Origin: Corallococcus macrosporus DSM 14697
Lineage (GTDB): Bacteria > Myxococcota > Myxococcia > Myxococcales > Myxococcaceae
Direction: 5' to 3'
DNA length: 64,000 bases
NCBI RefSeq assembly: GCF_002305895.1
Contig: NZ_CP022203.1
Coordinates: 8,590,001-8,654,000, forward strand
How positions within the stretch are numbered: the stretch's first letter is position 1; every line of letters starts with the position of its first letter. Below, piece after piece: positions 48,236-64,000 of this stretch. Both the position numbers and the translations under genes were made by a program. Under the pieces are notes generated by a model. That model saw only the letters and a program-made list of their open reading frames with translations, was not told where the DNA came from and did no database searches.

Positions 48236-49178
48236 GAAGCAGGCCTACCACCCTTGCAGCGTGCCATGGGCCGCGCGCCGCGCGATACAGCAGTGCCACG
48301 CCCGCACTGTTCTGCAAGTCGCCATCAATTGCCCCTCGGTTCAGCTATCGCTCACCGAGAGTCCGCGCACCTGACAGTTCTTCTGCCCCGCACTTCTGTC
48401 GCGGGCGGCATGAGGTCTCGTTTCACGAGAGAGCGACGGAGATTCCAGCACTGCGTTCACGCGAAATCGTCACCAACGTTGCTCAACGCCTTTCGGCATC
48501 TCGGCAAGCGGGCCTTGGGTGCGTCGAAGGTCGAAGGCCGTCCCCCCTCCGGCAGCAGCGCCGGGACGGCCTGGGCTTCCTCACCGAGGCTGTCACTGCC
48601 CAATTGCATGGCCAGCCTCCTCCCACTCTACTGCCTCATCATGTCTCGGATTCCGCCGCCCAGTCCGTCCCTGCGCGCTGAACGGCGACCCTCCCACACG
48701 CTGTTGCGGCGCCCCCCACTGAGCGCTTCGCCACGACCGCAGAGTTGGAAACCGTCATGCGTGCGAGGCTGGCGCAGTCGGGGCCCTATTCGGCCGAAGA
48801 CGCGGTGAGGGGAGACCAGCAGGCGCTGTTGGATGCAAGTGACAGGGTCTGGGACTTTGACGTACCGACAGATGAGGGGGGCATCACCCCACCCATGACG
48901 GAAGGCGCCCACGCGGACGAGCTTTCGACGGAAACCGCCCCCCCAGCGGGCCGCGCGGGGCTGTCGCTTCGACGCGCCACCCGGACGAGGTGACGACCGC
49001 CCCCGGTGAGGGGAGACGCTGCCCGGAGGGACGGCGGCCGACGGCCTGACGCCTTCGCTCACCCCTCCCTACAGCCCCACGCTGCGCACATGCCGCCGGT
49101 CCGGCGTTCCTGTCGGGCTGGGCAGGTATTACTTGGTTCTGCTTCCCACCTGGGGAGCACATCCAGGAGGCGCACGCG
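48236..49178. other. Gene-free interval between module B and the toxin cassette
   Basis: About 940 bases between divergent genes. Frames up to 184 codons occur on both strands but overlap one another and show no domain or ribosome site that I can support. The interval contains one notable element, the CRISPR-repeat-like sequence at 48479-48514. Promoters for both flanking operons should lie here. Confidence 0.6.
48479..48514 (+). repeat. Solitary CRISPR-repeat-like sequence
   Basis: Aligned with the 36-base repeat of the array at 53209-59624, 32 of 36 positions agree. The differences are at repeat positions 1 (G to T), 23 (A to T), 28 (G to A) and 35 (A to C). The central 20 bases (repeat positions 3-22, GCTCAACGCCTTTCGGCATC) are unchanged. 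No second copy lies one spacer length away on either side. It stands about 4.7 kb from the array and about 11 kb from the cas genes. Confidence 0.85.
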
Positions 49179-50519
49179 ATGGGAAGACGCCGGTGGGTGG
49201 GGATTCTATTGCTGTGGCTGCTGCCGATGACCGGAGGGGCCTCGGAGCCTCCCGTTTCCGAGGAGGCCACGCCCTCACCGGCGCCTCCGCCGCGCCGGTG
49301 GTACTACCTGACGCGCCTGGAGGCGGCGACGCTGGCGCTGCTGCCGCGTGCAGGGGCGGGCGAGCGTGAGGGCTTCGTGCAGGTGGAGCCGACCGTCATC
49401 CTCGACGGCGGCCCGGAGTTCGGCCTCAACGTGGGCGCCCCGGTGCGGCTGCGCTTGTGGGGTGGCGCTGCGGGCGCGAGCGTCGTTCGGCGGGAGGACT
49501 GGGACAGCCTCTCGGACTGGGGCCAGCTCGTGCGCGGGCTCAAGTTCGGCTCGGACACCGCGCCGCTGGGGGTGTGGTTCGGCGCACTGGAAGGCTACAG
49601 CCTGCTCACGGGCCACCTCGTGCGGCGCTACTCCAACCGGATGAATCCGGATTACCACCCGGCCGGAGGCGTCCTCACCGGCACCGTGGGCCCGCTCTAC
49701 ACGGAAGCCTTTGTCTCGGACGTGCTGGGCGCGCGCCTCATGGGCGCGGAGCTCTCCCTGGACATGCAACACGTCCTCTTCGGCAAACCGAAGGAGAAGG
49801 GGCGCTACACGCTGGCGCTGTCGGCCGTGCATGACTGGGGCAAGGTGGGAGGACGCGCGCCCTCGGTGACGCTGGCTCACCTGGACGCGACCGCCGTGGT
49901 GCTGGTGCGTCCGGGCTTTGAAGCACTCGTGGTCGCGGGATGGGGAGGACGGCCGATCGAGGGCGGCGCGTGGGGAGCGGTGGCGGGCGTGGGCGCTGAT
50001 GCGGTGACACCCACGCTGGACATGACACTGCGCCTGGAGGTGCGCAGGCAGCACGGCGGCTTCCGGCAGGGCTTCTTCGGCCCCGACTACGAGTTGGCGC
50101 GTTTCCATGCGGCGGGCCCGGAGGGCGTGCCGCTGGCCGAGGCGGCGTTTCCGGAGGGCTTCTCCCTCTACGGAGAGGCGGCGGTCGGTTGGGATGCGGT
50201 GAGCTACGGCGGGCGCTACCGGCACCTGCAATTGTCGCTGGGCGCGGAAGCCTTCACCTGGGGCCGCTTCGACGTGGACGGGCGCGTCGCGGTGCAGCTC
50301 TTCGAGCGCAGCCTGGAAGTTGCCTTGAAGGGGCTGGGCGTGGGCATGGGGCAACCGGGAGCGCGTTACCTGGGGGCGGCCGAAGTGCGCTGGCGCGTCC
50401 TGAGAGGGCGCCTCTACGCGCTGGGCACGGGCGGCACGCTGCTGTTCCCGCAGGGGGATGGGACGCTACGACCGGGAGCCTTCGCTTCGGTGGGCCTGGG
50501 GGTGGAGCATGCGCGCTAA
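49179..50519 (+). CDS. Beta-barrel outer-membrane protein, SitB-like by position
   Basis: A 446-residue exported protein. The signal peptide is VGILLLWLLPMTGGASE. The mature part alternates short amphipathic strands with aromatic ends (YSLLTGHLVRRYS, YTLALSAVHDWG, LDMTLRLEVRRQ, YRHLQLSLGAEAF) and ends in strand-like GLGVEHAR, so an outer-membrane barrel is likely. It overlaps the lipoprotein-toxin gene (ATG 50509 inside its end). In Myxococcus the sitB gene stands at this place, before sitA and sitI. The assignment as SitB rests on gene order, not on sequence that I can match. Confidence 0.6.
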   Translation: MGRRRWVGILLLWLLPMTGGASEPPVSEEATPSPAPPPRRWYYLTRLEAATLALLPRAGAGEREGFVQVEPTVILDGGPEFGLNVGAPVRLRLWGGAAGASVVRREDWDSLSDWGQLVRGLKFGSDTAPLGVWFGALEGYSLLTGHLVRRYSNRMNPDYHPAGGVLTGTVGPLYTEAFVSDVLGARLMGAELSLDMQHVLFGKPKEKGRYTLALSAVHDWGKVGGRAPSVTLAHLDATAVVLVRPGFEALVVAGWGGRPIEGGAWGAVAGVGADAVTPTLDMTLRLEVRRQHGGFRQGFFGPDYELARFHAAGPEGVPLAEAAFPEGFSLYGEAAVGWDAVSYGGRYRHLQLSLGAEAFTWGRFDVDGRVAVQLFERSLEVALKGLGVGMGQPGARYLGAAEVRWRVLRGRLYALGTGGTLLFPQGDGTLRPGAFASVGLGVEHAR

Positions 50520-52131
50520 CGCCCTGTTGTTGTTCGTGGCCGTGCTCGCAACGGGCTGCGCGTCGCTGACGCCAGCTCCTGGCCGCGGCAGGAGCTTGAG
50601 CTACACGACGCGAGGTGCCACCGCCCCCCCGTTGGCGCCATCGCCGAGCGAGGAATACCCGCACGCCCCCGCCTCCCTGCCGCCATCAGTCGCGGGCCCC
50701 GAGGTGCCGGAACGGCTGAGCCGCCGTCGAGGCTTCCGTGAGGTTGCGACTGGCGCAAGTCCCGGGAGCGTGGCGGGAGCCGTTGGGGGCTTCGTTGCGC
50801 GTGGCACCGCGCAGGAGGATGCGTGGGAGAAGTTGCTGACGGACGCCGGGCTGGAAGAGCGAGACGAGCGGCCCATGGGTGGCGCGCTCTCGCCGACACA
50901 GGCGGCGCGCCTTCTGGGGGTGCTGCTCCGTAGGCCGGTGACGCTCGGCACCTTCCCGCCGCGAATGGCCGTGGGCTATCTGCTGCGCGAGGTGCTGGAG
51001 GAAGGCGAGGTGTCCCGAGACGAGCTGCTGCGCCGCGTGGAACGCTTCGCCCGGGTGGCGGTGCTACGGCCTGACGGGTACCTGGCCTGGACGCGCACCG
51101 GCCGCACGCAGCAGAAGGCCGCGCCCGTGGAGTGGAGGGACGGTGCCTTCCGTGCGGGCCCCTTCGAGCTGGGGCGCTTCTACGTGAGCAACGGCTTCGT
51201 CTTCCAGCTCGCGGACGAACGGCTGGCTCCTGTCGAGGGCTCGGTGTTCGTGGAGGTTTACGACGACGCAGACTACGTGGGCCGCACCCTGGACGGAGCC
51301 GAAGCGGCCTTCGTGAAGCTGGCGCTCTCCATCGGCCACTTCTTCACCTACCCGCTGGACAGCATCGCCTCACTGAAGAATCTGCCCGCTGGAGTGGCCG
51401 CGCTCATCGAATCGTCCCCGGAATACTTCGAGCGCTTCCGGTACATGACGCGCGGTGAGCAGGTGCAGGCCATCGCGGAGTTGGCCACGAACCTCCTCGT
51501 GACGACGGGCACCGCCACGGGTACCACGCGCACGATTACAGGGGCACTGGCCGGTGCCGAAGCAACGGTGCCGGTGCTGTCGCTGTCCGCGCGGGGAGCG
51601 CTGGCGATTGAGCGTGTCGCGGTGCCGGTGGGAAGGGCGGCGGCTGTTCTGGGCGGTGGACCTGGAGCCACGCTCATCCTTCACCGGGCCAACACGGCAG
51701 CGCCTGGCGCCGGGCCATCGAAGGGACCTGGGCAGTGGGGTCCTGCGAAGGAGTCCATGAAGCCGCCTGCCCGGCGCTATCAGGAGCAGATCACGGGACA
51801 TGGCGCCGACGAGGCATACTGGGTCGGCGGTATGAGTGCGGCAGAGGGTGGTGTGAAGTTCGACGGCTTCAAGGACGGCGTGCTACTGGAGGCAAAGGGG
51901 CCTAACTACGCCAACAAGTTCGAGGACAGCCTCGAGCCTAGATTCTGGTTCGCGAACTCAGGGGCAGCGGAGATGGTCAAGCAAGCACAGCGGCAGATCG
52001 AAAGTGTGCGTGGCATGGGCATCCCCATCGAATGGCATGTGGCCGAGGCGAAGGTGGCCGAGGCAATCGAGTTGCTCTTCGAGCGCAACCAGGTCAGCGA
52101 GATCAGAGTTGTCCACACCCCTCCCCTCTGA
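50509..52131 (+). CDS. Lipoprotein toxin with C-terminal Tox-REase-5 domain, SitA-like
   Basis: A 540-residue lipoprotein. The lipobox VLATGC gives acylated Cys near residue 17. Residues about 20-400 are the conserved delivery part, with a hydrophobic Ala/Gly-rich stretch near residues 340-390. Residues about 420-540 match Tox-REase-5: RRYQEQITGHG, FDGFKDGVLLEAKGPNY (the Asp and Glu-x-Lys of a restriction-endonuclease fold) and QAQRQIESVRGMGIPIEWHVAE. A lipidated protein ending in a nuclease domain is the design of SitA toxins, which pass between myxobacteria by TraAB outer-membrane exchange. Cognate immunity follows at once. The delivery route is inferred. Confidence 0.82.
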   Translation: MRANALLLFVAVLATGCASLTPAPGRGRSLSYTTRGATAPPLAPSPSEEYPHAPASLPPSVAGPEVPERLSRRRGFREVATGASPGSVAGAVGGFVARGTAQEDAWEKLLTDAGLEERDERPMGGALSPTQAARLLGVLLRRPVTLGTFPPRMAVGYLLREVLEEGEVSRDELLRRVERFARVAVLRPDGYLAWTRTGRTQQKAAPVEWRDGAFRAGPFELGRFYVSNGFVFQLADERLAPVEGSVFVEVYDDADYVGRTLDGAEAAFVKLALSIGHFFTYPLDSIASLKNLPAGVAALIESSPEYFERFRYMTRGEQVQAIAELATNLLVTTGTATGTTRTITGALAGAEATVPVLSLSARGALAIERVAVPVGRAAAVLGGGPGATLILHRANTAAPGAGPSKGPGQWGPAKESMKPPARRYQEQITGHGADEAYWVGGMSAAEGGVKFDGFKDGVLLEAKGPNYANKFEDSLEPRFWFANSGAAEMVKQAQRQIESVRGMGIPIEWHVAEAKVAEAIELLFERNQVSEIRVVHTPPL

Positions 52132-52875
52132 GTGGAGCCCCCTGTGACCGAGAGACCTGTGCCTGAGGGCTACTATGCAGGTGCCTACTGGGGACCTCGA
52201 AAGGAGTCGCCCGAAGAGTGCGCTCAGCGCGCGGCAAACTTCCTCAACCTCCTGGCCCCGCATGACCCGCTGCTAGCTCACTGGTACAAGCCTGCCCGGT
52301 CAGCCAAGGACGCGCGCAAGCACCCACTGATGCCGCCCGATGTGCCCACGCTCACCGGTTTATTCCGGCGCGGCGTCAACCGCGAGCGTGGCGGGCCAGC
52401 CATCGAGCAACTGGGGTACACCCTCTGGTTCGACAACGGCGGTGGGAAGTTCGACAGGGCAGGACTTCAGATTCTCTGTGGGTGTTACTCAGAGGCAGTC
52501 TCCAATGCGTGCGTATTGACCCTGCCCAGCACTGGCCCGGAAGCAGAGCGGGTGGGCGCCGTTCCTGTGCTGGCCGGAGCGGTGCGGAGCATGGCTATGA
52601 CCTGGGACCCTGACTGGGCGGTCGCCACCTCCGATAGCTTCAGGAGGTTGATGCGCGAACCGTCCAAGTCGAGCGCGTTCGTAGGCTGGGTCACGTACCT
52701 GTCGCGGCGTCGGGGGATGGTGCCACCGCTGCCTGCTCCTGTCCGCATCGAGCCAGTTGAGGACAAGGGCACGCTGATCATCCTCACACCCGAGCGCCTG
52801 ACGGCGAGGAACCCTGAGCACGTCGAGCAGGGCCGCCGTGTGTGCGAGTTGCTGGCCAGAGCTGGCCGCATGTAG
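52132..52875 (+). CDS. Imm52-like immunity protein, SitI-like
   Basis: A 247-residue cytoplasmic protein directly after the toxin stop, with a GTG start at 52132 (a GTG at 52144 is also possible). The N-terminal YYAGAYWGPRKESPEECAQRA and later HWYKPARSAKDARKH and TLWFDNGGG fit Imm52, the known partner of Tox-REase-5 domains. It has no signal, as expected for an inhibitor of a cytoplasmic nuclease. It ends the cassette; the CRISPR array starts 333 bases further on. Confidence 0.78.
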   Translation: MEPPVTERPVPEGYYAGAYWGPRKESPEECAQRAANFLNLLAPHDPLLAHWYKPARSAKDARKHPLMPPDVPTLTGLFRRGVNRERGGPAIEQLGYTLWFDNGGGKFDRAGLQILCGCYSEAVSNACVLTLPSTGPEAERVGAVPVLAGAVRSMAMTWDPDWAVATSDSFRRLMREPSKSSAFVGWVTYLSRRRGMVPPLPAPVRIEPVEDKGTLIILTPERLTARNPEHVEQGRRVCELLARAGRM

Positions 52876-53208
52876 CCCGTCACCTCCTGACTCTCCAATC
52901 GTTCCGCGAGCCGATGGAGGTGCCGCCATGTGTCCCCAGTGTCCCCCTCCAGCGTGGTTCGAGGTGGCACGCCGTGGGACGGGGCGGGAGGAAGAACCCG
53001 AGGGAAATCCAGGCGACGGCGGGTACCAGCCCGTCCTACTCGGTTTCGGTATCACCGACCCGGCAAACAGCCTGGAACTACCCAACACAGGAATGACACG
53101 GAGCGGAGGATGCCATGCCACCAGTGAGTGTGGGCACGGATCGGGACGCGCGCAGCCAAGCAGCCATGGACGGGCGGTTCGGGCGCTCTCATCAAGAGGG
53201 GCTTGAGA
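52876..53208. other. Interval between the toxin cassette and the CRISPR array
   Basis: 333 bases. A plus-strand frame (52838-53206) overlaps the end of the immunity gene and is not supported by domain or ribosome site. I see no degenerate repeat here. It is the presumed trailer side of the array. Confidence 0.5.
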
Positions 53209-56200
53209 GTGCTCAACGCCTTTCGGCATCACGGCGAGCGGGACACCCCGAAGGCCAGGATGGCTGCCTCTGAATCATTGTGCTCAACGCCTTCCGGCAT
53301 CACGGCGAGCGGGACCAGGACACCCCACCGTGCGGCAAGGGGTACGTCGCGTGCTCAACGCCTTTCGGCATCACGGCGAGCGGGACCAAGCCGCGTCGTT
53401 CGCGTGGTGCTTGTTGAATAGGTGCTCAACGCCTTTCGGCATCACGGCGAGCGGGACAACGTGCGGTCGGTGCACAGCCACTGGGCGCCACCATGTGCTC
53501 AACGCCTTTCGGCATCACGGCGAGCGGGACTGGAAGGTGTCGCACCGCAAGGGCGTGCGCGCCTTGTGCTCAACGCCTTTCGGCATCACGGCGAGCGGGA
53601 CTGGAGGAGGTCATCACCTCCATGGCAGAGGGCGCCGAGACGTGCTCAACGCCTTTCGGCATCACGGCGAGCGGGACCGTTGCAACCGGCGGCCTGCCGG
53701 AGGGCTCCGGGTCTACGTGCTCAACGCCTTTCGGCATCACGGCGAGCGGGACTGTGAGCCCACTTTCCAAACGTCTGGAAACCGTGTGTGCTCAACGCCT
53801 TTCGGCATCACGGCGAGCGGGACTGGGCTACGACTTCGGCTATCCATGGTGGCGCAAGTGTGCTCAACGCCTTTCGGCATCACGGCGAGCGGGACAAGTG
53901 TTACGTGGTGCATCTCTTCATAGATCATTCATGTGCTCAACGCCTTTCGGCATCACGGCGAGCGGGACCTGGCGAAGTTGTCACGGTGCATGTGAAGGAC
54001 TGCAAGTGCTCAACGCCTTTCGGCATCACGGCGAGCGGGACCGGATCCTCCACAACCTCCAGCCGATCTCCGCTCATGTGCTCAACGCCTTTCGGCATCA
54101 CGGCGAGCGGGACCCTCCGCCACCATGGCGTCGCGCTGGGGGTGGTGGTGCTCAACGCCTTTCGGCATCACGGCGAGCGGGACGCTGCGCGACGACTTGC
54201 TGGTGGCGTCCAGTAAGCGGTGCTCAACGCCTTTCGGCATCACGGCGAGTGGGACACCGCTCAGGTCCATCGCCTCGGCATCAACCATGGTGTGCTCAAC
54301 GCCTTTCGGCATCACGGCGAGCGGGACGATCCTCCGGTCCGTACTCACGAGCCCCTCAAAGATGTGCTCAACGCCTTTCGGCATCACGGCGAGCGGGACC
54401 ACACCGGATGGTCAATGTGTTCATCATCCCACGGTGCTCAACGCCTTTCGGCATCACGGCGAGCGGGACCGTCGGCGGCGAGTCAGGGCCTGGCGCACGG
54501 CCCATGGTGCTCAACGCCTTTCGGCATCACGGCGAGCGGGACGTTGCCCCGTATCGCCTTCGCCAGCCCCGCCGCGTGCTCAACGCCTTTCGGCATCACG
54601 GCGAGCGGGACGGTAACACGCTCCTCGTCAACGAGATTTTCTACAGGTGCTCAACGCCTTTCGGCATCACGGCGAGCGGGACTAGGTTCAGGGTCGACGT
54701 ATGCACAAACGGTGTGTGCTCAACGCCTTTCGGCATCACGGCGAGCGGGACCTACGACTGCCATGGGCTGGGCACCCGCCGAGCAGGTGCTCAACGCCTT
54801 TCGGCATCACGGCGAGCGGGACAGCGCGGTGCCGTTCGACAGGCAGCGCCGCTGCATGTGCTCAACGCCTTTCGGCATCACGGCGAGCGGGACATCCCCA
54901 GGACCACGGCTGACATACGCCTCCCACCTCGTGCTCAACGCCTTTCGGCATCACGGCGAGCGGGACACCACGTTCTACACGTTCAAACCTGAGAGAAACG
55001 ACGTGCTCAACGCCTTTCGGCATCACGGCGAGCGGGACTCCATCAAGCCCATCGCATCCAACCGCACGAAGTTGTGCTCAACGCCTTTCGGCATCACGGC
55101 GAGCGGGACCATGGAGCCTGAACCGCCGCTGGGTCCTCTCGGCGTGCTCAACGCCTTTCGGCATCACGGCGAGCGGGACCTGGGGCAGGGTGACCTCTAC
55201 GACCGCTACCTGGGGTGCTCAACGCCTTTCGGCATCACGGCGAGCGGGACACGAAACCGGGCCCTTCATGGGCATCATGAAAACGTGCTCAACGCCTTTC
55301 GGCATCACGGCGAGCGGGACGGTGCGTCGTCCTCGACTGCGAGGCGGACGCCGGGTGCTCAACGCCTTTCGGCATCACGGCGAGCGGGACCGTGGCTGCT
55401 GCCGCAGACGTTCAACCTCGGCATGTGCTCAACGCCTTTCGGCATCACGGCGAGCGGGACCATGCTCACGCGCGCGCGCTTGCTTCAGCTCCGTTTCGTG
55501 CTCAACGCCTTTCGGCATCACGGCGAGCGGGACGACCGCATCCTCGGGATCCTCCGGGTGGCCGAGGAGGTGCTCAACGCCTTTCGGCATCACGGCGAGC
55601 GGGACTGGGTTCACTGGTTACAGCTCGGCCGGTTCGGTGTGCTCAACGCCTTTCGGCATCACGGCGAGCGGGACACGCGCGACACGTCAACTCGGTCGCT
55701 GTATTTAGTGCTCAACGCCTTTCGGCATCACGGCGAGCGGGACAAGAAGGCCAAGGGCGTCAGGGCGCGGAAACTGAGGTGCTCAACGCCTTTCGGCATC
55801 ACGGCGAGCGGGACTAGGCGAACCACGCCACCTCCTTGCCAGCGAAGTACGTGCTCAACGCCTTTCGGCATCACGGCGAGCGGGACGTGCTGCTACCGGG
55901 ACGCGATGCGCACAGAAATCCAGCGGTGCTCAACGCCTTTCGGCATCACGGCGAGCGGGACCGCGTTCGGCTCCAGCATCCAGCGCGCGACGATTGGGTG
56001 CTCAACGCCTTTCGGCATCACGGCGAGCGGGACGTCCCGCTGCGCGAGCGCGTCATCCCGCTCGTCAGGTGCTCAACGCCTTTCGGCATCACGGCGAGCG
56101 GGACGCGGCACCAGGTGCCCCGCTGTGACTCGGGCGGAGGCGAAGGGTGCTCAACGCCTTTCGGCATCACGGCGAGCGGGACGCTTCACCACCTCCTCGT

Positions 56201-57601
56201 CCTCCGCCCAGGGGAGTGCTCAACGCCTTTCGGCATCACGGCGAGCGGGACGGGTCTCACTTCGCAACAGGGAGATCTCCAATGGCTGTGCTCAACGCCT
56301 TTCGGCATCACGGCGAGCGGGACCTCAACTCCAGCGCCGCGTCCCGCTGCGCGAGCGCGTGTGCTCAACGCCTTTCGGCATCACGGCGAGCGGGACCGGG
56401 CGCGGCAGGCGGTGGAGACGCTGGTGGTCGAGTGCTCAACGCCTTTCGGCATCACGGCGAGCGGGACCACTGGAGGTGCCCGGTGAGCGCCCCGGTGAAG
56501 GTGCTCAACGCCTTTCGGCATCACGGCGAGCGGGACTGAGAGGGGTAGAGCGTGATTTCCATGACGTCATGTGCTCAACGCCTTTCGGCATCACGGCGAG
56601 CGGGACTATGCCGGTGAATAGAACGACCAAGGGCGGATACGAGTGCTCAACGCCTTTCGGCATCACGGCGAGCGGGACCCGTCGCCGCCACCAGAGATGG
56701 ACACCAGGGAGTGTGCTCAACGCCTTTCGGCATCACGGCGAGCGGGACGAGGCTGACCGCTACAGCACCCGGGAGGAAGCCGTGCTCAACGCCTTTCGGC
56801 ATCACGGCGAGCGGGACGTTGCTCGGCTTCCGGCACGAGAAGTACGGCGACAGGTGCTCAACGCCTTTCGGCATCACGGCGAGCGGGACCTCACTGTGTC
56901 GTCTCAGACTGCACTTCCTGCTGGACGGTGCTCAACGCCTTTCGGCATCACGGCGAGCGGGACCCTGTCCGTCGTACTCGCCCAGCGACTGGACAGCCGG
57001 TGCTCAACGCCTTTCGGCATCACGGCGAGCGGGACGAGGGCGCTGGTTACGAGATGGTGGACTGAGAGAGGTGCTCAACGCCTTTCGGCATCACGGCGAG
57101 CGGGACGAGATGGACGTGGGTGAGCTGCGCGCCCGCTACGCGTGCTCAACGCCTTTCGGCATCACGGCGAGCGGGACCGCATGGCGCGCGAGGCGGCATC
57201 GGGTCTGTCACGTGCTCAACGCCTTTCGGCATCACGGCGAGCGGGACGGGGCGCAGTCGATTCAGTTCACCTCGGGGGGGAGTGCTCAACGCCTTTCGGC
57301 ATCACGGCGAGCGGGACAGCATCTTCGTCAGGCCCTGAAGCAGAGAGGAATCCCTGTGCTCAACGCCTTTCGGCATCACGGCGAGCGGGACACACCACAA
57401 TTCAGATCGGTACTGGCGCAGCAGGTGCTCAACGCCTTTCGGCATCACGGCGAGCGGGACCACTTCTCCGGTAGTGGGGCGCGACGAATCCGCATGTGTG
57501 CTCAACGCCTTTCGGCATCACGGCGAGCGGGACACGATGCCGAGGATATTTGTAAGTGTTTGTTGGTGCTCAACGCCTTTCGGCATCACGGCGAGCGGGA
57601 C
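53209..57601 (-). CRISPR. CRISPR array, leader-distal block of 62 repeats
   Basis: Repeats are 36 bases, reading GTGCTCAACGCC...GCGAGCGGGAC on the plus strand, at 53209, 53280, 53351 and so on to 57566. Spacers are 33-42 bases. Sixty-two repeats were counted; nearly all are identical. The second repeat (53280) has C for T at position 15, and the one at 54220 has a T for C in GCGAGTGGGAC. The variant near the left end agrees with a trailer there. Two spacers (56034-56068 and 56324-56360) share 20 bases. The array is probably transcribed leftward from the cas2 side. Confidence 0.97.
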
Positions 57602-57615
57602 CGGAATTGGTTCAT

Positions 57616-57624
57616 AGTCTCTCC
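57616..57624. repeat. Left 9-bp target duplication of the IS4 insertion
   Basis: AGTCTCTCC, repeated exactly at 58928-58936. Joining the two halves of the split spacer with one copy gives a 36-base spacer (14 + 9 + 13), the normal length here. Confidence 0.95.
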
Positions 57625-58927
57625 CTGAGTCGTCCCCTCATTTGAGCCGAGCGTCAAGGGCCGTCCCCAGCGGTTGGCTGGTGCCGGAGCAGCGCGGGAA
57701 GCGGCAGTGAGGCGCGCGCTTTTCGGCGCCAGAGGTTGTCCTGCATCGTGCGGAGCATGTCGAAATCCATAACGCACGCCGAGGTGCATCGGTTCATTGA
57801 GGAAGCCGTCGGCCCGGACACCCATGCTAAGCGTGTGCTGTCGCTGTCCAATGCCACCTTGGGCGCCGTGCACGCCGCCAGCCTCTCGGTGAGGGCCATC
57901 GGACTGGCGCTCTCCCAGGCGCGGGGGTTGGAAGGCAAGCACGCCATCAAGCAGGTGGACCGACTGCTGTCCAACTCTGGCGTCGACGTGTGGCGACTGT
58001 TCGCGCAGTGGGTGCCCTTCGTGGTGGCCGAGCGCAAAGCGGTGACAGTCACCATTGACTGGACGGACTTCGAGTCGGACGACCACACCACGGTCGCCAT
58101 CCAGCTTGTCACCCGCCACGGCCGCGCCACGCCGTTGCTGTGGAAGACGGTGCCCAAGAGCGAGTTGGCCGGGCAGCGCAATGCCCATGAGGACGCGTTG
58201 CTGGAGCGATTGCACCAGGTGCTGCCCTCCGACGTGGAGGTGACGGTGCTCGCGGACCGAGGATTCGGAGACGTCGCCCTGTATGAATTGCTGGACAGAC
58301 TCAGCTTCGGCTACGTCATTCGCTTTCGTGGCGTCGTGCACGTCGAAAGTGCCGGAGGGGAGGTGCACAAGGCGAAGGAGTGGGTGCCCCCGACGGGCCG
58401 TCCGAAGTTGCTGCGCGGAGCGCGCGTCACCCAGGCCCGTTTCGGCGTGGGTGCCGTCGTCTGCGTGCACCAGAAGGGAATGAAAGAGGCCTGGTTTCTG
58501 GCGGCCAGCAGCAAGGAAGCCACTGCCACCGAGTTGGTGAAGGCCTACGGACGTCGCTTCACCTGCGAGGAGACGCACCGGGACATCAAGGACTTGCGCT
58601 TCGGCATGGGCCTGTCCGCCATCGCTATCGGCACCTGCGAGCGCCGCGACAGACTGTTGCTGCTGTCCGCCTTCGCCATGGCGCTGCTGACGCTGCTCGG
58701 CGCTGCGGGCGAAGCGACGGGGCTCGACAGGAAGTTCCGCGCCGACACCCGTAAGACGCGCGAGTACTCTCTCTTTCGGCAAGGCATCATCTACTACGGC
58801 GCCCTCGCCAACATGCGAGAGGAGTGGCTCCGCCCCCTCATGGAGAAATTCGCCGAGCTCATCCGCGAGCAGGCCGTCTTCCGCGAGGCATTCGGCTTCA
58901 TTTGATTCGAATGAGGGGACGGCTCAG
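57625..58927 (+). mobile_element. IS4-family insertion sequence inside a CRISPR spacer
   Basis: A 1303-bp element. The ends are imperfect inverted repeats: CTGAGTCGTCCCCTCATT at the left and CTGAGCCGTCCCCTCATT on the complement of the right (17 of 18 identical). It is flanked by the 9-bp duplication AGTCTCTCC. One transposase gene fills the element. Tips, duplication length and transposase motifs agree with IS4 (IS10-like) elements. Confidence 0.95.
57757..58905 (+). CDS. IS4-family transposase
   Basis: A 382-residue transposase. Catalytic residues are Asp101 (TIDWTDFES), Asp167 (VLADRGFGD) and Glu271. The IS4 signature Y(2)R(3)E(6)K is exact: YGRRFTCEETHRDIK, with Lys278. Length and motif spacing fit the IS10/IS4 groups. 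ATG 57757 is preferred to the TTG at 57736. The frame is intact, so the element may be active. It is transcribed opposite to the presumed direction of the CRISPR array. Confidence 0.93.
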   Translation: MSKSITHAEVHRFIEEAVGPDTHAKRVLSLSNATLGAVHAASLSVRAIGLALSQARGLEGKHAIKQVDRLLSNSGVDVWRLFAQWVPFVVAERKAVTVTIDWTDFESDDHTTVAIQLVTRHGRATPLLWKTVPKSELAGQRNAHEDALLERLHQVLPSDVEVTVLADRGFGDVALYELLDRLSFGYVIRFRGVVHVESAGGEVHKAKEWVPPTGRPKLLRGARVTQARFGVGAVVCVHQKGMKEAWFLAASSKEATATELVKAYGRRFTCEETHRDIKDLRFGMGLSAIAIGTCERRDRLLLLSAFAMALLTLLGAAGEATGLDRKFRADTRKTREYSLFRQGIIYYGALANMREEWLRPLMEKFAELIREQAVFREAFGFI

Positions 58928-58949
58928 AGTCTCTCCGGCACTATACTAC

Positions 58950-59624
58950 GTGCTCAACGCCTTTCGGCATCACGGCGAGCGGGACAGGCGCTACGCATCA
59001 TCGGCGCTTCCGGGCAGGTGCTCAACGCCTTTCGGCATCACGGCGAGCGGGACAACTTCCCGATGGCGGTGAATCGCCGGACACGGATGTGTGCTCAACG
59101 CCTTTCGGCATCACGGCGAGCGGGACCCATCCGCCTTTTCGAGTCCTGGATCGACCCTGCCGAGTGCTCAACGCCTTTCGGCATCACGGCGAGCGGGACA
59201 TCGCGGCTGGGTGACGATTTCAGGCGTCCTCACGTGCTCAACGCCTTTCGGCATCACGGCGAGCGGGACCGGCTATCGCATACTATTGTGCCTTTAGATT
59301 CAGTGCTCAACGCCTTTCGGCATCACGGCGAGCGGGACAACCCCACGAGGGCCGCGAGGTCCGACCCGCCCAGGTGCTCAACGCCTTTCGGCATCACGGC
59401 GAGCGGGACGGCAACACCGTGCCCGCGTCGCCCGTCGCCGTCAGGTGCTCAACGCCTTTCGGCATCACGGCGAGCGGGACCGGCGTCACCAACAACGTCA
59501 ACAACGGGGTGACGAAGTGCTCAACGCCTTTCGGCATCACGGCGAGCGGGACCGTGGTGCGTGGCGGCAGGCGTCGCCGCAGGAACAGGTGCTCAACGCC
59601 TTTCGGCATCACGGCGAGCGGGAC
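58950..59624 (-). CRISPR. CRISPR array, leader-proximal block of 10 repeats
   Basis: Ten identical 36-base repeats begin at 58950, 59018, 59091, 59164, 59234, 59303, 59374, 59445, 59517 and 59589. With the 62 repeats left of the IS element the array has 72 repeats and 71 spacers. The 13 bases 58937-58949 are the right part of the spacer that the IS split. This block is nearest cas2, so it should hold the newest spacers. Confidence 0.97.
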
Positions 59625-59873
59625 AGCCCGCCTGAATCTCCCAGCAATTCCGGCACCTTACAAGCCCCTTTTCAAGCACCTCCCCCTCCCTCCTCCAGGT
59701 TGGCTGCTCCAGACCCTACCCAGAATCGCCAACCCCATGAGAACACTCGGCTTTCATCGATCATGCACCTATTCACCTGTCAAAGAGCCTCAACCCCATG
59801 AACTCACAGGCGATTTCGCCCGTTTCGCCGTCGCGGGCCGCCGCCACGGCGAGGTGCTTGATTGTCGCCAACC
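59625..59873 (-). promoter_or_regulatory. Presumed CRISPR leader
   Basis: About 250 bases between the last repeat and the end of cas2, visibly less GC-rich than the surroundings, with pyrimidine-rich stretches on the plus strand. On the minus strand a TTGACA (59783-59778) could be a -35 element reading towards the array, but no good -10 follows at 16-18 bases. No gene is supported here. Leader identity is inferred from its place next to cas2 and the variant repeat at the far end of the array. Confidence 0.55.
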
Positions 59874-60167
59874 CTACAGCACCTTGAACGGTGCGGGCTC
59901 CTCCGGCCAGTCCTCCTTCGCGTTGATGGCGCGCACGCGCTCCACGCACCCGCCGCACAGGCCAATCACCAGCAACGTATCCACGGCGTCCATCCGCCGC
60001 GACAGCTCCCAGCGCAGCTTCTCCCGGTCCCGGTCCGTCAGCGAGCAACGGAAGACGGAGAGCTGCAACCACTCCCCATAGCCCTTCAGCAGGCCATGCA
60101 CCTTCCGCCACCGCTTCGGGTCGCGGATGTCATAGGTAATCAGATACCAACGCCTCGGCTCGGCCAT
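59874..60167 (-). CDS. cas2: CRISPR adaptation protein Cas2
   Basis: A 97-residue Cas2. The start [26 protein letters not shown] is the family signature, with YDI carrying the conserved Asp, and [10 protein letters not shown] and [12 protein letters not shown] follow. Cas2 bridges Cas1 dimers in spacer integration. Its ATG lies 3 bases after the cas4-cas1 stop, with AGGTGA as ribosome site inside the end of that gene. It is the last gene of the cas operon. Confidence 0.95.
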
Positions 60168-60170
60168 GGC

Positions 60171-61832
60171 TCACCTCAAGCGGAACGTCGCGAACAGCCC
60201 TGGCTTGCCGGTCCACTCCTTCTCCAGCAGCCGGACCTCCAGCTCCACCAGCCGCGCGTAGCTGAGCGAGTACCCCAGCACGTTGTGCTTCCACGTCTCC
60301 CGCTTGCGCCGCTCGTACAGCTCGATGGCCTTCGCCCGCCCCGTCTTGCTGAGCCAGACGTGCTCGGACGTCACCTCGAAGTCCGCGTCCGCGTCCCACG
60401 CCCGCCGGTTCACCGAGGCCACCAGCGGCATGTCCGCCAGCGGCACCCGGAACAGCTCCATCACGTCCAGGCCCAGCGGCCCCGCCGAGCCCCGAGGCTG
60501 GTGGTAGAAGCCAAACGCCACGTCCAGCCCCACCGCCCGGATGGCCGCCTCCACCTCCCGGTGGACCAGCCCGTACAGGAAGCCGAGCGCCGCGTTGAAC
60601 CGGTCCCTCGGGGGCCGCCGGTTGCGGCCATCGAAGCGCAGCCGCGCGTCCACGTCCTCGCCTTGCAGGTACGGCAGCGCCCCGAAGTACCGCGCCGCGC
60701 CCGCCCCCTCCAGCCCCAGGAGCACCTCCAACGACGGCGCCTCCGCGCACTTCGGCAACAACTCCCGGAGGTCCCGCACCGCCGAGGCCAACACCTTACG
60801 CGACTCCGTGTCACCGCGCGAGGCGCGCATCAGGAAGCGGAGCTGCCCCTCCAGCTTCGCCGCCACCAGGCGCCGGGCGAGCCCCAGGCACACCGCCTCC
60901 TGCCGGAGCGCCTCGAACTGCCGCAGCCGCCGGTGGACGCTCCCCGCCCCGCCAGTCAACCCGCCCAGGTACCGCCCCCCGGACGTGAACCAGTGCACGC
61001 CGATGTCGTTCTCCACGCAGTACGCCAGCGCCTGCGCGCTCACCTGCACCGCCCCGTGCGCGATGAGCGCCGACACCATTCGCCCTGGCTGCCGGGTCGG
61101 CTCGCCCTCCCCGTCTGGAGGCGTCACCACCAGTTGCTCCGACGACTTCCCCACCCGCGCCCCAGGCGTCGTGACGTGCAGCACCAACCGCACGTCGTCC
61201 TCCGGGAACAGCCGAGGCCGCTCCTCGCCAGCGCCGCTCCGCTCCTCCTCCGGGAGACACACGGGCGCCAGCGAGCACTTCGCGCACTTGCGCTCCTCCG
61301 GCGTCACCGGCGGACGTTCCCGTGACGCGCGCAACAGCCGGGCCCGCGACACCGCCGCCGCCACGTCGCGCCGCAGCGCCGCGTCCAACGGAAAAGACAC
61401 CGTCGTGTCCGTCTGGTGGTACCGGACCCGGCACTCCACGGGCGTCCCCGGGAAGCGCTCCTCCACCAGGAGCGCGTAGGCCCCCGCCTGGAGCCGGTCG
61501 CTCGGCCAGGCCTCCGGTGCGTCCCGGCCAGGCGCGTGACGCCCGCGCTTGTGCTCGTGGACGACCAGGGTGCCCTCGCGCGTCCTCAGCGCATCCACCC
61601 GACCATGAAGCCCCAGGGCCTCGCTGGCCAGCTCCAGTTCGACGCGCTCTCCTTCCTCTTGAAGCTGGACGTGCAGCCGCCGCCCCGCGAACACGGAGGC
61701 GTCGGCCACGCGCAGCTCCTCCACCTCTTCCAGGTAGAAGAGCCGCTCGCAGTACGCCAGCGCGTGCAATGCGTGCGTGCGGATGGACGGCTCGGCGACA
61801 TCGGGCTTCGGACTCGTGACAGGTACGTTCAT
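60171..61832 (-). CDS. cas4-cas1: Cas4-Cas1 fusion protein
   Basis: A 553-residue fusion. The N-terminal 190 residues are Cas4: HALHALAYCERLFYLEE (first Cys), GRVDAL and VVHEHKRG (RecB nuclease motif), LQAGAYALL, and CAKCSLAPVC (Fe-S Cys cluster). Cas1 follows, from about residue 215: LVVTPPDG, LSAQALAYC-like start, LGLEGAGAARYFGAL (catalytic Glu), FGFYHQPRGSAGPLGLDVMELFR (His and Asp). Together they trim, PAM-select and integrate new spacers. ATG 61832 has AAGG upstream; a TTG at 61877 would add 15 unconserved residues. Such fusions are known in dev-like and I-G systems. Confidence 0.93.
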   Translation of the reverse strand: MNVPVTSPKPDVAEPSIRTHALHALAYCERLFYLEEVEELRVADASVFAGRRLHVQLQEEGERVELELASEALGLHGRVDALRTREGTLVVHEHKRGRHAPGRDAPEAWPSDRLQAGAYALLVEERFPGTPVECRVRYHQTDTTVSFPLDAALRRDVAAAVSRARLLRASRERPPVTPEERKCAKCSLAPVCLPEEERSGAGEERPRLFPEDDVRLVLHVTTPGARVGKSSEQLVVTPPDGEGEPTRQPGRMVSALIAHGAVQVSAQALAYCVENDIGVHWFTSGGRYLGGLTGGAGSVHRRLRQFEALRQEAVCLGLARRLVAAKLEGQLRFLMRASRGDTESRKVLASAVRDLRELLPKCAEAPSLEVLLGLEGAGAARYFGALPYLQGEDVDARLRFDGRNRRPPRDRFNAALGFLYGLVHREVEAAIRAVGLDVAFGFYHQPRGSAGPLGLDVMELFRVPLADMPLVASVNRRAWDADADFEVTSEHVWLSKTGRAKAIELYERRKRETWKHNVLGYSLSYARLVELEVRLLEKEWTGKPGLFATFRLR

Positions 61833-61877
61833 GCCTTGGGGGCCCCCCGCCCCCGACTTCGCGACAACGACAGACAA

Positions 61878-62522
61878 CTACCCAGCGCCCTCCGCGAGCG
61901 GAATCCGCGGGAGCCGCTGGACCGCGGGCGCCTCCAGGACGTCTTCGAGCAGCCCCACCGCGTAGCGGGAGCCGCGAGTGCCCACATGGTCCACCCAGAC
62001 CGGCAGGGTGAGGGCACCCGCTGGCGCGACCAGGAAGGTCCTGCAGCTCGCGGGTGGGCGCCCCGCTGGCAGCAGGTGTGCGTCGTTGATGAGGTGCGTG
62101 GACTCACCCAAGGACCACGCCCCGCTCCGCGTCACCGTGCCAGGCTCGAGCATCGCCCGGATGACACGGACCTCCAGCGACTCCCGGGAGTCAACCTCCT
62201 CCCCGCTGTCACACCACACCACCAGCCGCGCTTCGATGACGAGTTGCTGCTGGTCCGGCGCGGCGTTCTCGTCATTCCCCTTGGCGACCTTCAGGTTCTT
62301 CGAGCGCCAGAAGGTGCGCAGCACCGTGCTGATGACGGGCGCGTTCAGCACCCCCGCCGTCACCCGGCAGCCCCGGTGCCGCTCCCGGTCCTGCTCGCCG
62401 ACGAGCGACAACAACGCGCCGTAGCACGTCGCGGGAGGCGGCAGGACCTCCGTCTCCACCAGCTCGCGCGCCCGCCCCTTGCGCCAGCACGCCACGGGCA
62501 CGGACAGTTCGAGCGCGATCAC
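61878..62522 (-). CDS. devS: Cas5 (DevS-like) Cascade subunit
   Basis: A 214-residue Cas5-family protein. The start VIALELSVPVACWRKGRARELVETEVLPPPATCYGALLSLVGE contains the N-terminal RAMP strand and the PPPATCYGALLSL helix typical of Cas5. The middle VLRTFWRSKNLKV and the late LINDAHLLP segments fit the MYXAN (DevS) branch. It caps the crRNA 5' handle in Cascade. The GTG at 62522 overlaps the cas7 stop by four bases, so it is translationally coupled. Confidence 0.85.
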   Translation of the reverse strand: MIALELSVPVACWRKGRARELVETEVLPPPATCYGALLSLVGEQDRERHRGCRVTAGVLNAPVISTVLRTFWRSKNLKVAKGNDENAAPDQQQLVIEARLVVWCDSGEEVDSRESLEVRVIRAMLEPGTVTRSGAWSLGESTHLINDAHLLPAGRPPASCRTFLVAPAGALTLPVWVDHVGTRGSRYAVGLLEDVLEAPAVQRLPRIPLAEGAG

Positions 62523-63427
62523 CTCTTCCCCGCCTCCATCCGCTTGCACGCCGCGCGGCAGGCGGCGACCACGCCCGCGTGCAGCTCCGCGCCCGACAGG
62601 ACCTCTCGCTCCTCGGCGCTCAGCCCCTCCACCGCCTGACCGCCCAACACCAACTCCTTCGCGGGGACGTCCCCGCTCTTCACCTTGCGCAGCAACGCGG
62701 CGAGCTCCACGCCGCCCGGTCGGGAGGACGGCTCGAAGGCGTACAGGATGCGCGGCGCGGCCTCCTGCGTGAGCCGGAAGACGACCGACTCCGGACTGAA
62801 GTCGAAGAGGAAGCGGCCATGGTTGCCAGCGACGGGCCCCAACGCGCAGAGCTGGTTCAACGCGGTCACCGCGCGGGCGGGGACCCGGAGCGCGTCCGGC
62901 GTCAACGCCACGCCATACTGGTAGCGCGTCGCGTGCATCTCCGTGCCGTAGGGGACGGGGTTGCTCCCCTTCTTCTGCGCGGAGGGCGTGGCCCCCGGGC
63001 TCGCGGCGTTGAAGGTGACGTCCCCGGACCACGGCGTGAGGCTCACCGCCCGGGACACCTCCAGCACCGCGCGGCGGACCTTCGCGGTGCCCTTGTCGCC
63101 TTCCTGCTTCGCGCCCTCCGCGGCCATGAAGCCCAGCAGGTCATCATCGATGTATGTCTTCTCCTTCGACTTCGCGGCCCAGGCGCTGAAGTCCTTGTCC
63201 TTCCATTCGTTGGCGCGCAGCGCGTCGTCATAGGTGCGGTTGCACGGCTCCAGCGCATTCAAGCGCCGCCGCAGGGCGAAGCGGATGGACTCGGCGGAGA
63301 CGGTGGTGTGGACCTGGCCGTTCCACACCAGCTTCTGGAGGCTGGTGATGTTCCCCTCGGTGAGGCCCCGGTTGTTGGCGGCGGTTCCCAGCGGCGTGAC
63401 GAAGGCGGCGAAGACGTGAAGGCTCAT
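62519..63427 (-). CDS. devR: Cas7 (DevR-like) Cascade backbone subunit
   Basis: A 302-residue protein of the DevR/Cst2/Csa2 family. The start LHVFAAFVTPLGTAANNRGLTEGN and SLQKLVWNGQVHTTVSAESIRFALRR match DevR, followed by TYDDALRANEWKDKDF, DLLGFM and EMHATRYQYGVAL. Multiple copies coat the crRNA. In M. xanthus the homologue devR also acts in fruiting-body development. It starts 28 bases after the cas8 stop. The dev name is by homology. Confidence 0.92.
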   Translation of the reverse strand: MSLHVFAAFVTPLGTAANNRGLTEGNITSLQKLVWNGQVHTTVSAESIRFALRRRLNALEPCNRTYDDALRANEWKDKDFSAWAAKSKEKTYIDDDLLGFMAAEGAKQEGDKGTAKVRRAVLEVSRAVSLTPWSGDVTFNAASPGATPSAQKKGSNPVPYGTEMHATRYQYGVALTPDALRVPARAVTALNQLCALGPVAGNHGRFLFDFSPESVVFRLTQEAAPRILYAFEPSSRPGGVELAALLRKVKSGDVPAKELVLGGQAVEGLSAEEREVLSGAELHAGVVAACRAACKRMEAGKR

Positions 63428-63455
63428 GACGTGACTCCAAGAACGTGTCGCTAGC

Positions 63456-64000
63456 TCAAGACTGCTCATCCGCGGCGGACTCATCGTCCGCAGACTCCAA
63501 CTCCGCCGCCTCGGGGCCCTGGCTCTGGTAACTGGCCAGCGCCACCAGCGCGAGGTCACGGGCCTCGCGCCACCGCTCAGGGCCCAGCAACGGCAGGACC
63601 TCCCGCCAGTGCTCCTGGAGTTCGCTGTTGCTGCCTGCCCGGCTCCACAGGTCCGCCAGCGCCGCGCGCACCTGCTCCGGCGTCTTCGCGCCGGCAAAGC
63701 CCAACCGCAGCCGCTCACGCTCCCCCTTGAGCCGGTTGGAGCGCGTGGCCTTCGGACTGTGTTCGGTGTCCTTGTAGATGCTCCTGAACCGGGCACGCAG
63801 TGCGAGGTGGACGCTCTGGACGAGCCACTGCTCGGCATCTCCCAGATACGAATGCATGGTGGTGAGCCCCTTCCTTTCGTGCCACAGCAGTGCGCCCAGG
63901 TTGTCCCGGTCGCGGTAGGTGTGAATGAAGCGCCCCTCCGCCGTCGTCGCCGTGGCGAAGCCCGCGTACCAGGGACGCGCGGCCGCGAGGTTCTCCGTGA
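63456..64000 (-). CDS. devT: Cas8a1/Csx13 (DevT-like), C-terminal part, cut by the window edge
   Basis: The frame is open from the right edge to the stop at 63456, at least 181 codons. Upstream of an internal Met it reads ARPWYAGFATATTAEGRF and YRDRDNLGALLWHERKGL, then GDAEQWLVQSVHLALRARF, with a helical region (RNRLKGERERLRL, LADLWSRAG, ALVALASYQS) to an acidic end. This is the C-terminal part of the MYXAN-type large subunit (DevT). The ATG at 63857 is internal, not the start. The N-terminal part, and probably cas3 and cas6, lie outside the window. Confidence 0.68.
   Translation of the reverse strand, partial: TENLAAARPWYAGFATATTAEGRFIHTYRDRDNLGALLWHERKGLTTMHSYLGDAEQWLVQSVHLALRARFRSIYKDTEHSPKATRSNRLKGERERLRLGFAGAKTPEQVRAALADLWSRAGSNSELQEHWREVLPLLGPERWREARDLALVALASYQSQGPEAAELESADDESAADEQS

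What the first reader, a model, noticed from the sequence alone, without database searches (positions are those of the whole stretch)
57566..58985. IS4-family element inserted within a CRISPR spacer, cutting the array in two
The 9-bp duplication AGTCTCTCC and the reconstructed 36-base spacer prove insertion in a spacer. Only 10 of 72 repeats remain next to the presumed leader; 62 are beyond an element transcribed the other way. Transcription of the older spacers may be lost, yet their repeats are still almost perfect, so the insertion is recent or the block has its own promoter.
Basis: seen in the sequence. Interest (0 to 1): 0.7.

Follow-up and report, generated by a model that had tools for sequence, protein, structure and literature searches.

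The report
Jumping gene splits CRISPR memory array
A small jumping gene has landed inside one of the 71 stored virus memories of a soil bacterium's CRISPR immune system and split the memory bank 10:62; such hits are known elsewhere, and a sequence signal in front of the bank suggests the far part may still be read, which makes this a useful natural test.

Summary
A 1303-bp IS4-family element (57625-58927) lies inside one spacer of a 72-repeat array (53209-59624). It is flanked by a 9-bp duplication, AGTCTCTCC; the empty spacer would be 36 nt. Sixty-two repeats lie on the trailer side and 10 on the leader side. Orientation is now tested: the array belongs to a type I-MYXAN (MxI-B, 'dev') locus read on the minus strand, and the leader next to cas2 is conserved in the genome's second array and in seven related species. 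The genome carries six intact copies of the element, each with its own 9-bp duplication; the CRISPR copy is identical to one of them, so the insertion is young. No sister strain with the empty site was found, and no relative examined shares a spacer. Near-perfect repeats say nothing about age, since intact arrays look the same. Loss of the distal block is not shown: the leader holds an invariant GCTCTTTGACA that resembles the genome's own rRNA boxA antiterminator (GTTCTTTGACA), and the element shows no intrinsic terminator in the array's direction, so I favour read-through. The split spacer keeps 22 of its 36 guide bases next to the leader-side repeat. IS-split arrays are known; this is a new member of a known kind.

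The parts
53209..57601 (-). distal (older, trailer-side) block of the CRISPR array: 62 repeats, 61 whole spacers
57602..57624 (-). PAM-distal part of the split spacer with one copy of the 9-bp target duplication (57616-57624 AGTCTCTCC)
57625..58927 (+). IS4-family insertion sequence, 1303 bp, terminal inverted repeats 57625-57645 and 58907-58927 (19/21 identical)
57736..58905 (+). transposase gene, 389 aa; NCBIfam IS4 family transposase 226.7 bits (cut-off 152), Pfam DDE_Tnp_1; DDE motifs and YREK signature (YGRRFTCEETHRDIK)
58928..58949 (-). second copy of the target duplication (58928-58936) and 13 further bases: 22 nt of the original guide still next to the leader-side repeat
58950..59624 (-). 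leader-proximal block: 10 repeats, 9 whole spacers
59625..59873 (-). leader between cas2 and the first repeat; conserved in the genome's second array and in seven relatives
59778..59788 (-). GCTCTTTGACA, boxA-like antitermination signal, invariant in 9 leaders, 154 bp from the first repeat
59874..60167 (-). cas2
60171..61877 (-). cas4-cas1 fusion, type I-MYXAN
61878..62564 (-). cas5 (devS)
62519..63838 (-). reading frame with cas7 (devR); cas8a1, cas3 and cas6 follow beyond the window
48479..48514 (-). solitary degenerate repeat (31/36), probably the former terminal repeat of this array, cut off by an older 4.7-kb insertion (48515-53208)

Best explanation
An active IS4-family element that has recently multiplied in this Myxococcus genome inserted, apparently at random, into a spacer of the MxI-B ('dev') CRISPR array (shown by the sequence). 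The array is read on the minus strand from the cas2-side leader (shown by conservation; transcription itself not shown). The insertion destroys the intact form of one spacer. I infer that it does not switch off the 61 older spacers: a transcript starting at or before the leader carries a boxA-like signal, as in the genome's own rRNA operons, and the Nus-modified polymerase should resist Rho and read through 1.3 kb of untranslated antisense IS RNA into the distal block. Cas6 would then cut at the repeats as before. The likely cost is one disabled or chimeric guide (22 nt of spacer, then IS end sequence), a 1.3-kb longer precursor, and some loss of distal crRNA. The same read-through RNA is antisense to the transposase mRNA.
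For: Anatomy, TSD and rebuilt 36-nt spacer. Six intact copies plus one interrupted copy of the element, all with distinct target duplications; the CRISPR copy is identical to the copy at 8127293 and differs from the other four at 3 positions each. Leader conserved across 9 arrays; relatives vary at the other end of the array, as trailers do. Published B-type repeats end in TTGAGCAC, which fits the minus strand here (PMC11237760). Full cas set present: cas6, cas3, cas8a1, cas7, cas5, cas4-cas1, cas2. GCTCTTTGACA occurs three times in 8.97 Mb: the two CRISPR leaders and a tRNA-Ser cluster. The rRNA form GTTCTTTGACA occurs three times, two of them in 16S-23S spacers. Reversed-pattern controls gave 0. 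No intrinsic-terminator-like site on the minus strand of the element. boxA in a leader raises expression of distal spacers (PMC7862264).
Against: No RNA data. The motif differs at one position (A to G) from the gamma-proteobacterial boxA consensus GYTCTTTAANA, and Nus binding in Myxococcus is not shown. The element has four C-rich/G-poor windows on the minus-strand RNA (up to C/G 1.75), a weak hint of Rho loading sites, though the distal array has similar ones. Collision with transposase transcription could lower read-through. The scan for an outward promoter covers only sigma-70-like sites.
Confidence: 0.6

Rival explanations
1. One reading: the insertion is polar. Transcription from the leader ends inside the element, by Rho on untranslated antisense RNA or by collision with transposase transcription, so the 61 distal spacers are silent and the array works as a 9-spacer array.
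For: The element is untranslated in the array's direction and has a few C-rich/G-poor windows on that strand; no outward promoter-like site was found that could rescue the distal block; crRNA amount falls with distance even in intact long arrays (PMC10883916).
Against: boxA-like signal in the leader, shared with the genome's rRNA spacers; no intrinsic terminator on the minus strand of the element; the most C-rich windows are no more extreme than in the distal array itself.
Confidence: 0.3
2. The distal block is expressed from its own promoter, inside the element near its left end or inside a spacer, so both blocks work independently.
For: Cryptic promoters inside arrays are known (PMC10883916); near-perfect distal repeats would fit continued use.
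Against: No sigma-70-like site on either strand around the element; repeat uniformity is equal in uninterrupted arrays, so it is no evidence.
Confidence: 0.08
3. The insertion was selected because it disabled a harmful spacer (against the own chromosome or a useful element), as reported for ISC1359 in Sulfolobus solfataricus.
For: Precedent in PMC4390879; the insertion lies in a spacer, not in a repeat.
Against: The rebuilt spacer has no match with up to 3 mismatches in the own chromosome or 26 congeners and no exact match in viral or genome collections. Spacers make up 49% of the array, so a spacer hit is a coin toss. 22 nt of the guide next to the repeat remain.
Confidence: 0.04
4. The two blocks come from different arrays joined by recombination between IS copies.
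For: Several IS copies exist, and the genome has a second array about 29 kb away.
Against: Both flanks carry the same 9-bp duplication and together make a spacer of normal length; the second array has a different repeat letter at position 15, and no spacer is shared.
Confidence: 0.01

Closest known systems
IS6110 in the direct-repeat (CRISPR) locus of Mycobacterium tuberculosis (PMC7820667)
   Same: An insertion sequence splits one ancestral array into two blocks; the hidden spacer can be rebuilt; both blocks persist
   Different: IS3 family, inserted in a repeat with a 3-bp duplication, in the M. tuberculosis type III-A system; here IS4 family, in a spacer, 9-bp duplication, type I-MYXAN
MITE HqIRS37 in a CRISPR spacer of Haloquadratum walsbyi HBSQ001 (PMC3119063)
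   Same: Mobile element inside a spacer near the leader end
   Different: A small non-autonomous element in a decayed array without cas genes; here an autonomous IS in a locus with a full cas set
ISC1359 insertion in a spacer of Sulfolobus solfataricus (PMC4390879)
   Same: IS inside a spacer, which disables that guide
   Different: Selected in the laboratory against a plasmid-targeting spacer; here no target is known
boxA/Nus antitermination of CRISPR arrays (Stringer et al. 2020, as cited in PMC7862264; the original paper is not held)
   Same: boxA-like motif in the leader upstream of a long array
   Different: Here the motif has G at position 8, the form used by this genome's rRNA spacers, and a foreign 1.3-kb element lies in the transcript; function not tested

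Membership tests
IS4 family insertion sequence | DDE transposase with the YREK signature (Y-x2-R-x3-E-x6-K) | tested here: met
   NCBIfam transpos_IS4_2 226.7 bits, cut-off 152; Pfam DDE_Tnp_1; YGRRFTCEETHRDIK fits the spacing (read from the translation)
IS4 family insertion sequence | short terminal inverted repeats | tested here: met
   19/21 identical
IS4 family insertion sequence | target duplication of about 9 bp, sequence differing between copies | tested here: met
   six intact copies with six different 9-bp duplications
IS4 family insertion sequence | place within the ISfinder subgroups | not testable with these tools
   ISfinder is not held
type I-MYXAN / MxI-B CRISPR-Cas | Cas8a1/Cmx1, Cas6/Cmx6, Cas5/DevS, Cas7/DevR, Cas3, Cas4-Cas1 fusion, Cas2 | tested here: met
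type I-MYXAN / MxI-B CRISPR-Cas | 36-bp repeat ending in TTGAGCAC on the crRNA strand | tested here: met
   motif from PMC11237760
type I-MYXAN / MxI-B CRISPR-Cas | expressed and active in interference | not testable with these tools
   shown for M. xanthus DK1622 in PMC11237760, not for this strain
boxA-dependent antitermination | match to the boxA consensus GYTCTTTAANA | tested here: inconclusive
   GCTCTTTGACA matches 10 of 11 positions (consensus from PMC5725501) but has the core of this genome's rRNA-spacer motif GTTCTTTGACA
boxA-dependent antitermination | conserved in the leader on the transcribed strand | tested here: met
   invariant in 9 leaders
boxA-dependent antitermination | binding of NusB/S10 and suppression of Rho termination | not testable with these tools
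   needs experiment
IS-interrupted CRISPR array | one array before insertion: identical duplication on both sides and a normal spacer after joining | tested here: met
IS-interrupted CRISPR array | empty site seen in a sister strain (supporting, not required) | tested here: inconclusive
   no match in 27 genomes of the genus, none in genome contigs, no shared spacer in the relatives examined; the collections hold one genome per species, so absence is weak evidence

The most novel reading that the evidence does not exclude
The array is cut in DNA but not in function: a Nus-modified polymerase loaded at the leader boxA carries transcription through a whole foreign element, so array immunity tolerates insertions, and the read-through RNA is antisense to the transposase mRNA and may damp further transposition of the element.
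Probability: 0.4. Interest if true: 0.5.

Novelty: new member of a known kind. Interest (0 to 1): 0.33.

Why it matters
Long CRISPR arrays are untranslated RNA and should be prone to Rho termination. A clean, young 1.3-kb insertion after nine spacers, in an array whose leader carries a conserved boxA-like motif, is a ready-made test of whether antitermination protects distal memories against interruption. It also adds a well-defined case to the short list of mobile elements caught inside a spacer.

Tried and rejected
Empty site in relatives: the rebuilt spacer with up to 3 mismatches in 27 genomes of the genus and exactly in the genome collection: none. Shared spacers: compared with the arrays of eight relatives, including G021 with 82 repeats: none. 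Spacers against the element itself: no spacer of either array matches the IS. Phage targets: only 40-bp matches of 85-90% to actinophages, probably chance; viral contigs exact: none. A second IS-split array suspected in G023 (1275-bp gap) proved not to be an IS: the gap holds a gene I read as SMI1/KNR4-like from its translation, not from a profile search, and the next repeat is degenerate like a terminal repeat. I first took TTGACA in the leader for a -35 box and dropped this: the scan found no promoter, and the 11-mer pattern across the genome points to boxA.

Full report
What is there. The window carries a CRISPR array of 72 repeats of 36 bp (53209-59624), 70 of them identical, with spacers of 32-42 nt. 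After the repeat at 57566-57601 a 1348-bp gap contains a 1303-bp insertion sequence, 57625-58927. It has terminal inverted repeats of 19/21 bp, one intact transposase gene on the + strand and a 9-bp target duplication, AGTCTCTCC, on both sides. Joining the flanks gives one spacer of 36 nt. The transposase passes the NCBIfam cut-off for IS4 (226.7 bits against 152) and shows the YREK spacing. The insertion is therefore a real, simple transposition into a spacer.

The element is young and has been active in this genome. The single 8.97-Mb contig carries six intact copies and one copy interrupted by another insertion; every intact copy has its own 9-bp duplication. The CRISPR copy is identical to that at 8127293 and differs from the other four at three positions each. 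One 98%-identical copy exists in G021; the other congeners have no close full-length copy. At random, the chance that one of seven copies lands in either array is about 0.8%. No spacer of either array matches the element.

Orientation. The genes next to the array are cas2, a cas4-cas1 fusion, cas5/devS and cas7/devR, all on the minus strand, followed beyond the window by cas8a1, cas3 and cas6: a complete type I-MYXAN (MxI-B, 'dev') set. About 29 kb further on lies a second array of 64 repeats next to type III-B cmr genes. The 250 bp between cas2 and the first repeat are conserved in the second array and in seven relatives, while repeats degenerate at the other end in relatives. Published work gives the crRNA-strand end of these repeats as TTGAGCAC (PMC11237760), which is the minus strand here.

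Does the cut silence the older block? That argument fails: uninterrupted arrays are just as uniform (G014: 2 variants in 68; G021: 5 in 82). Two other facts bear on it. First, the leader contains GCTCTTTGACA, invariant in all nine leaders. In the whole genome this 11-mer occurs three times: in the two CRISPR leaders and within a tRNA-Ser cluster. The form GTTCTTTGACA occurs three times, twice in 16S-23S rRNA spacers. Reversed-pattern controls were zero. These are the places of boxA, the Nus-dependent antitermination signal; the gamma-proteobacterial consensus GYTCTTTAANA (PMC5725501) differs at one position. boxA upstream of arrays raises expression of distal spacers (PMC7862264). Second, the element has no intrinsic-terminator-like site in the array's direction, and its C-rich windows are no more extreme than those in the array. 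I therefore think read-through into the distal block more likely than silence, but no RNA data exist here and the motif's function is inferred.

The split spacer. Read on the crRNA strand, the leader-side repeat is still followed by 22 of the 36 original guide bases and then by the end of the element. The repeat-proximal (seed) end of the guide is intact. Whether a chimeric or trimmed guide is made, and whether it works, is open.

A probable second, older cut. A solitary repeat with five mismatches lies at 48479-48514. It scores far above chance (29 against a shuffle maximum of 12). In relative G012 the terminal repeat of the array lies 288 bp from a PAAR-type gene; here the solitary repeat lies 242 bp from the homologous gene. 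The intergenic bases themselves are not alignable, so the case rests on position and orientation. The 4.7 kb between it and the array encode a Tox-REase-5 toxin, an Imm52 immunity protein and an unassigned protein. It looks as if a toxin-immunity cassette had earlier cut off the last repeat.

Precedents. IS6110 splits the direct-repeat locus of M. tuberculosis (PMC7820667), a MITE sits in a spacer of H. walsbyi (PMC3119063), and ISC1359 disabled a spacer in S. solfataricus under selection (PMC4390879). That review also calls CRISPR loci rather intractable to transposition. The kind of event is known; the combination with an intact locus and a boxA-like leader makes it a useful test case rather than a novelty.

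Limits. Genomes are held one per species, so the failure to find an empty site says little. Expression, interference and Nus binding cannot be tested here.

Noticed in passing
48479-48514 and 48515-53208: A solitary degenerate CRISPR repeat lies 4.7 kb beyond the array, at the position where G012 has its terminal repeat; the DNA between carries a Tox-REase-5/Imm52 cassette. Probably an older cut of the same array.
   Followed up: partly
59778-59788 (-) and genome 8683173-8683183 (-): GCTCTTTGACA, invariant in MxI-B and III-B CRISPR leaders of Myxococcus, close to this genome's rRNA-spacer motif GTTCTTTGACA: a candidate boxA for CRISPR arrays in myxobacteria.
   Followed up: partly
spacers at 56034-56068 and 56324-56360: Two spacers overlap by 20 bases (GTCCCGCTGCGCGAGCGCGT) and are offset against each other, as if taken from neighbouring positions of one target.
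   Followed up: partly
L038 (G023), 15664-16938 on the reverse strand: A relative has 9 repeats separated from 23 more by 1.3 kb holding a gene that reads like an SMI1/KNR4-type immunity gene; the next repeat is degenerate at its edge, as if two arrays or another cassette insertion.
   Followed up: partly
genome 6242796-6246687 (L035): A seventh copy of the element is itself interrupted by about 2.6 kb with a short duplication.
   Followed up: no
54470-54506: One spacer matches a gene of Gordonia phage Portcullis over 40 bp at 90%, odd for a myxobacterial spacer and possibly chance.
   Followed up: no
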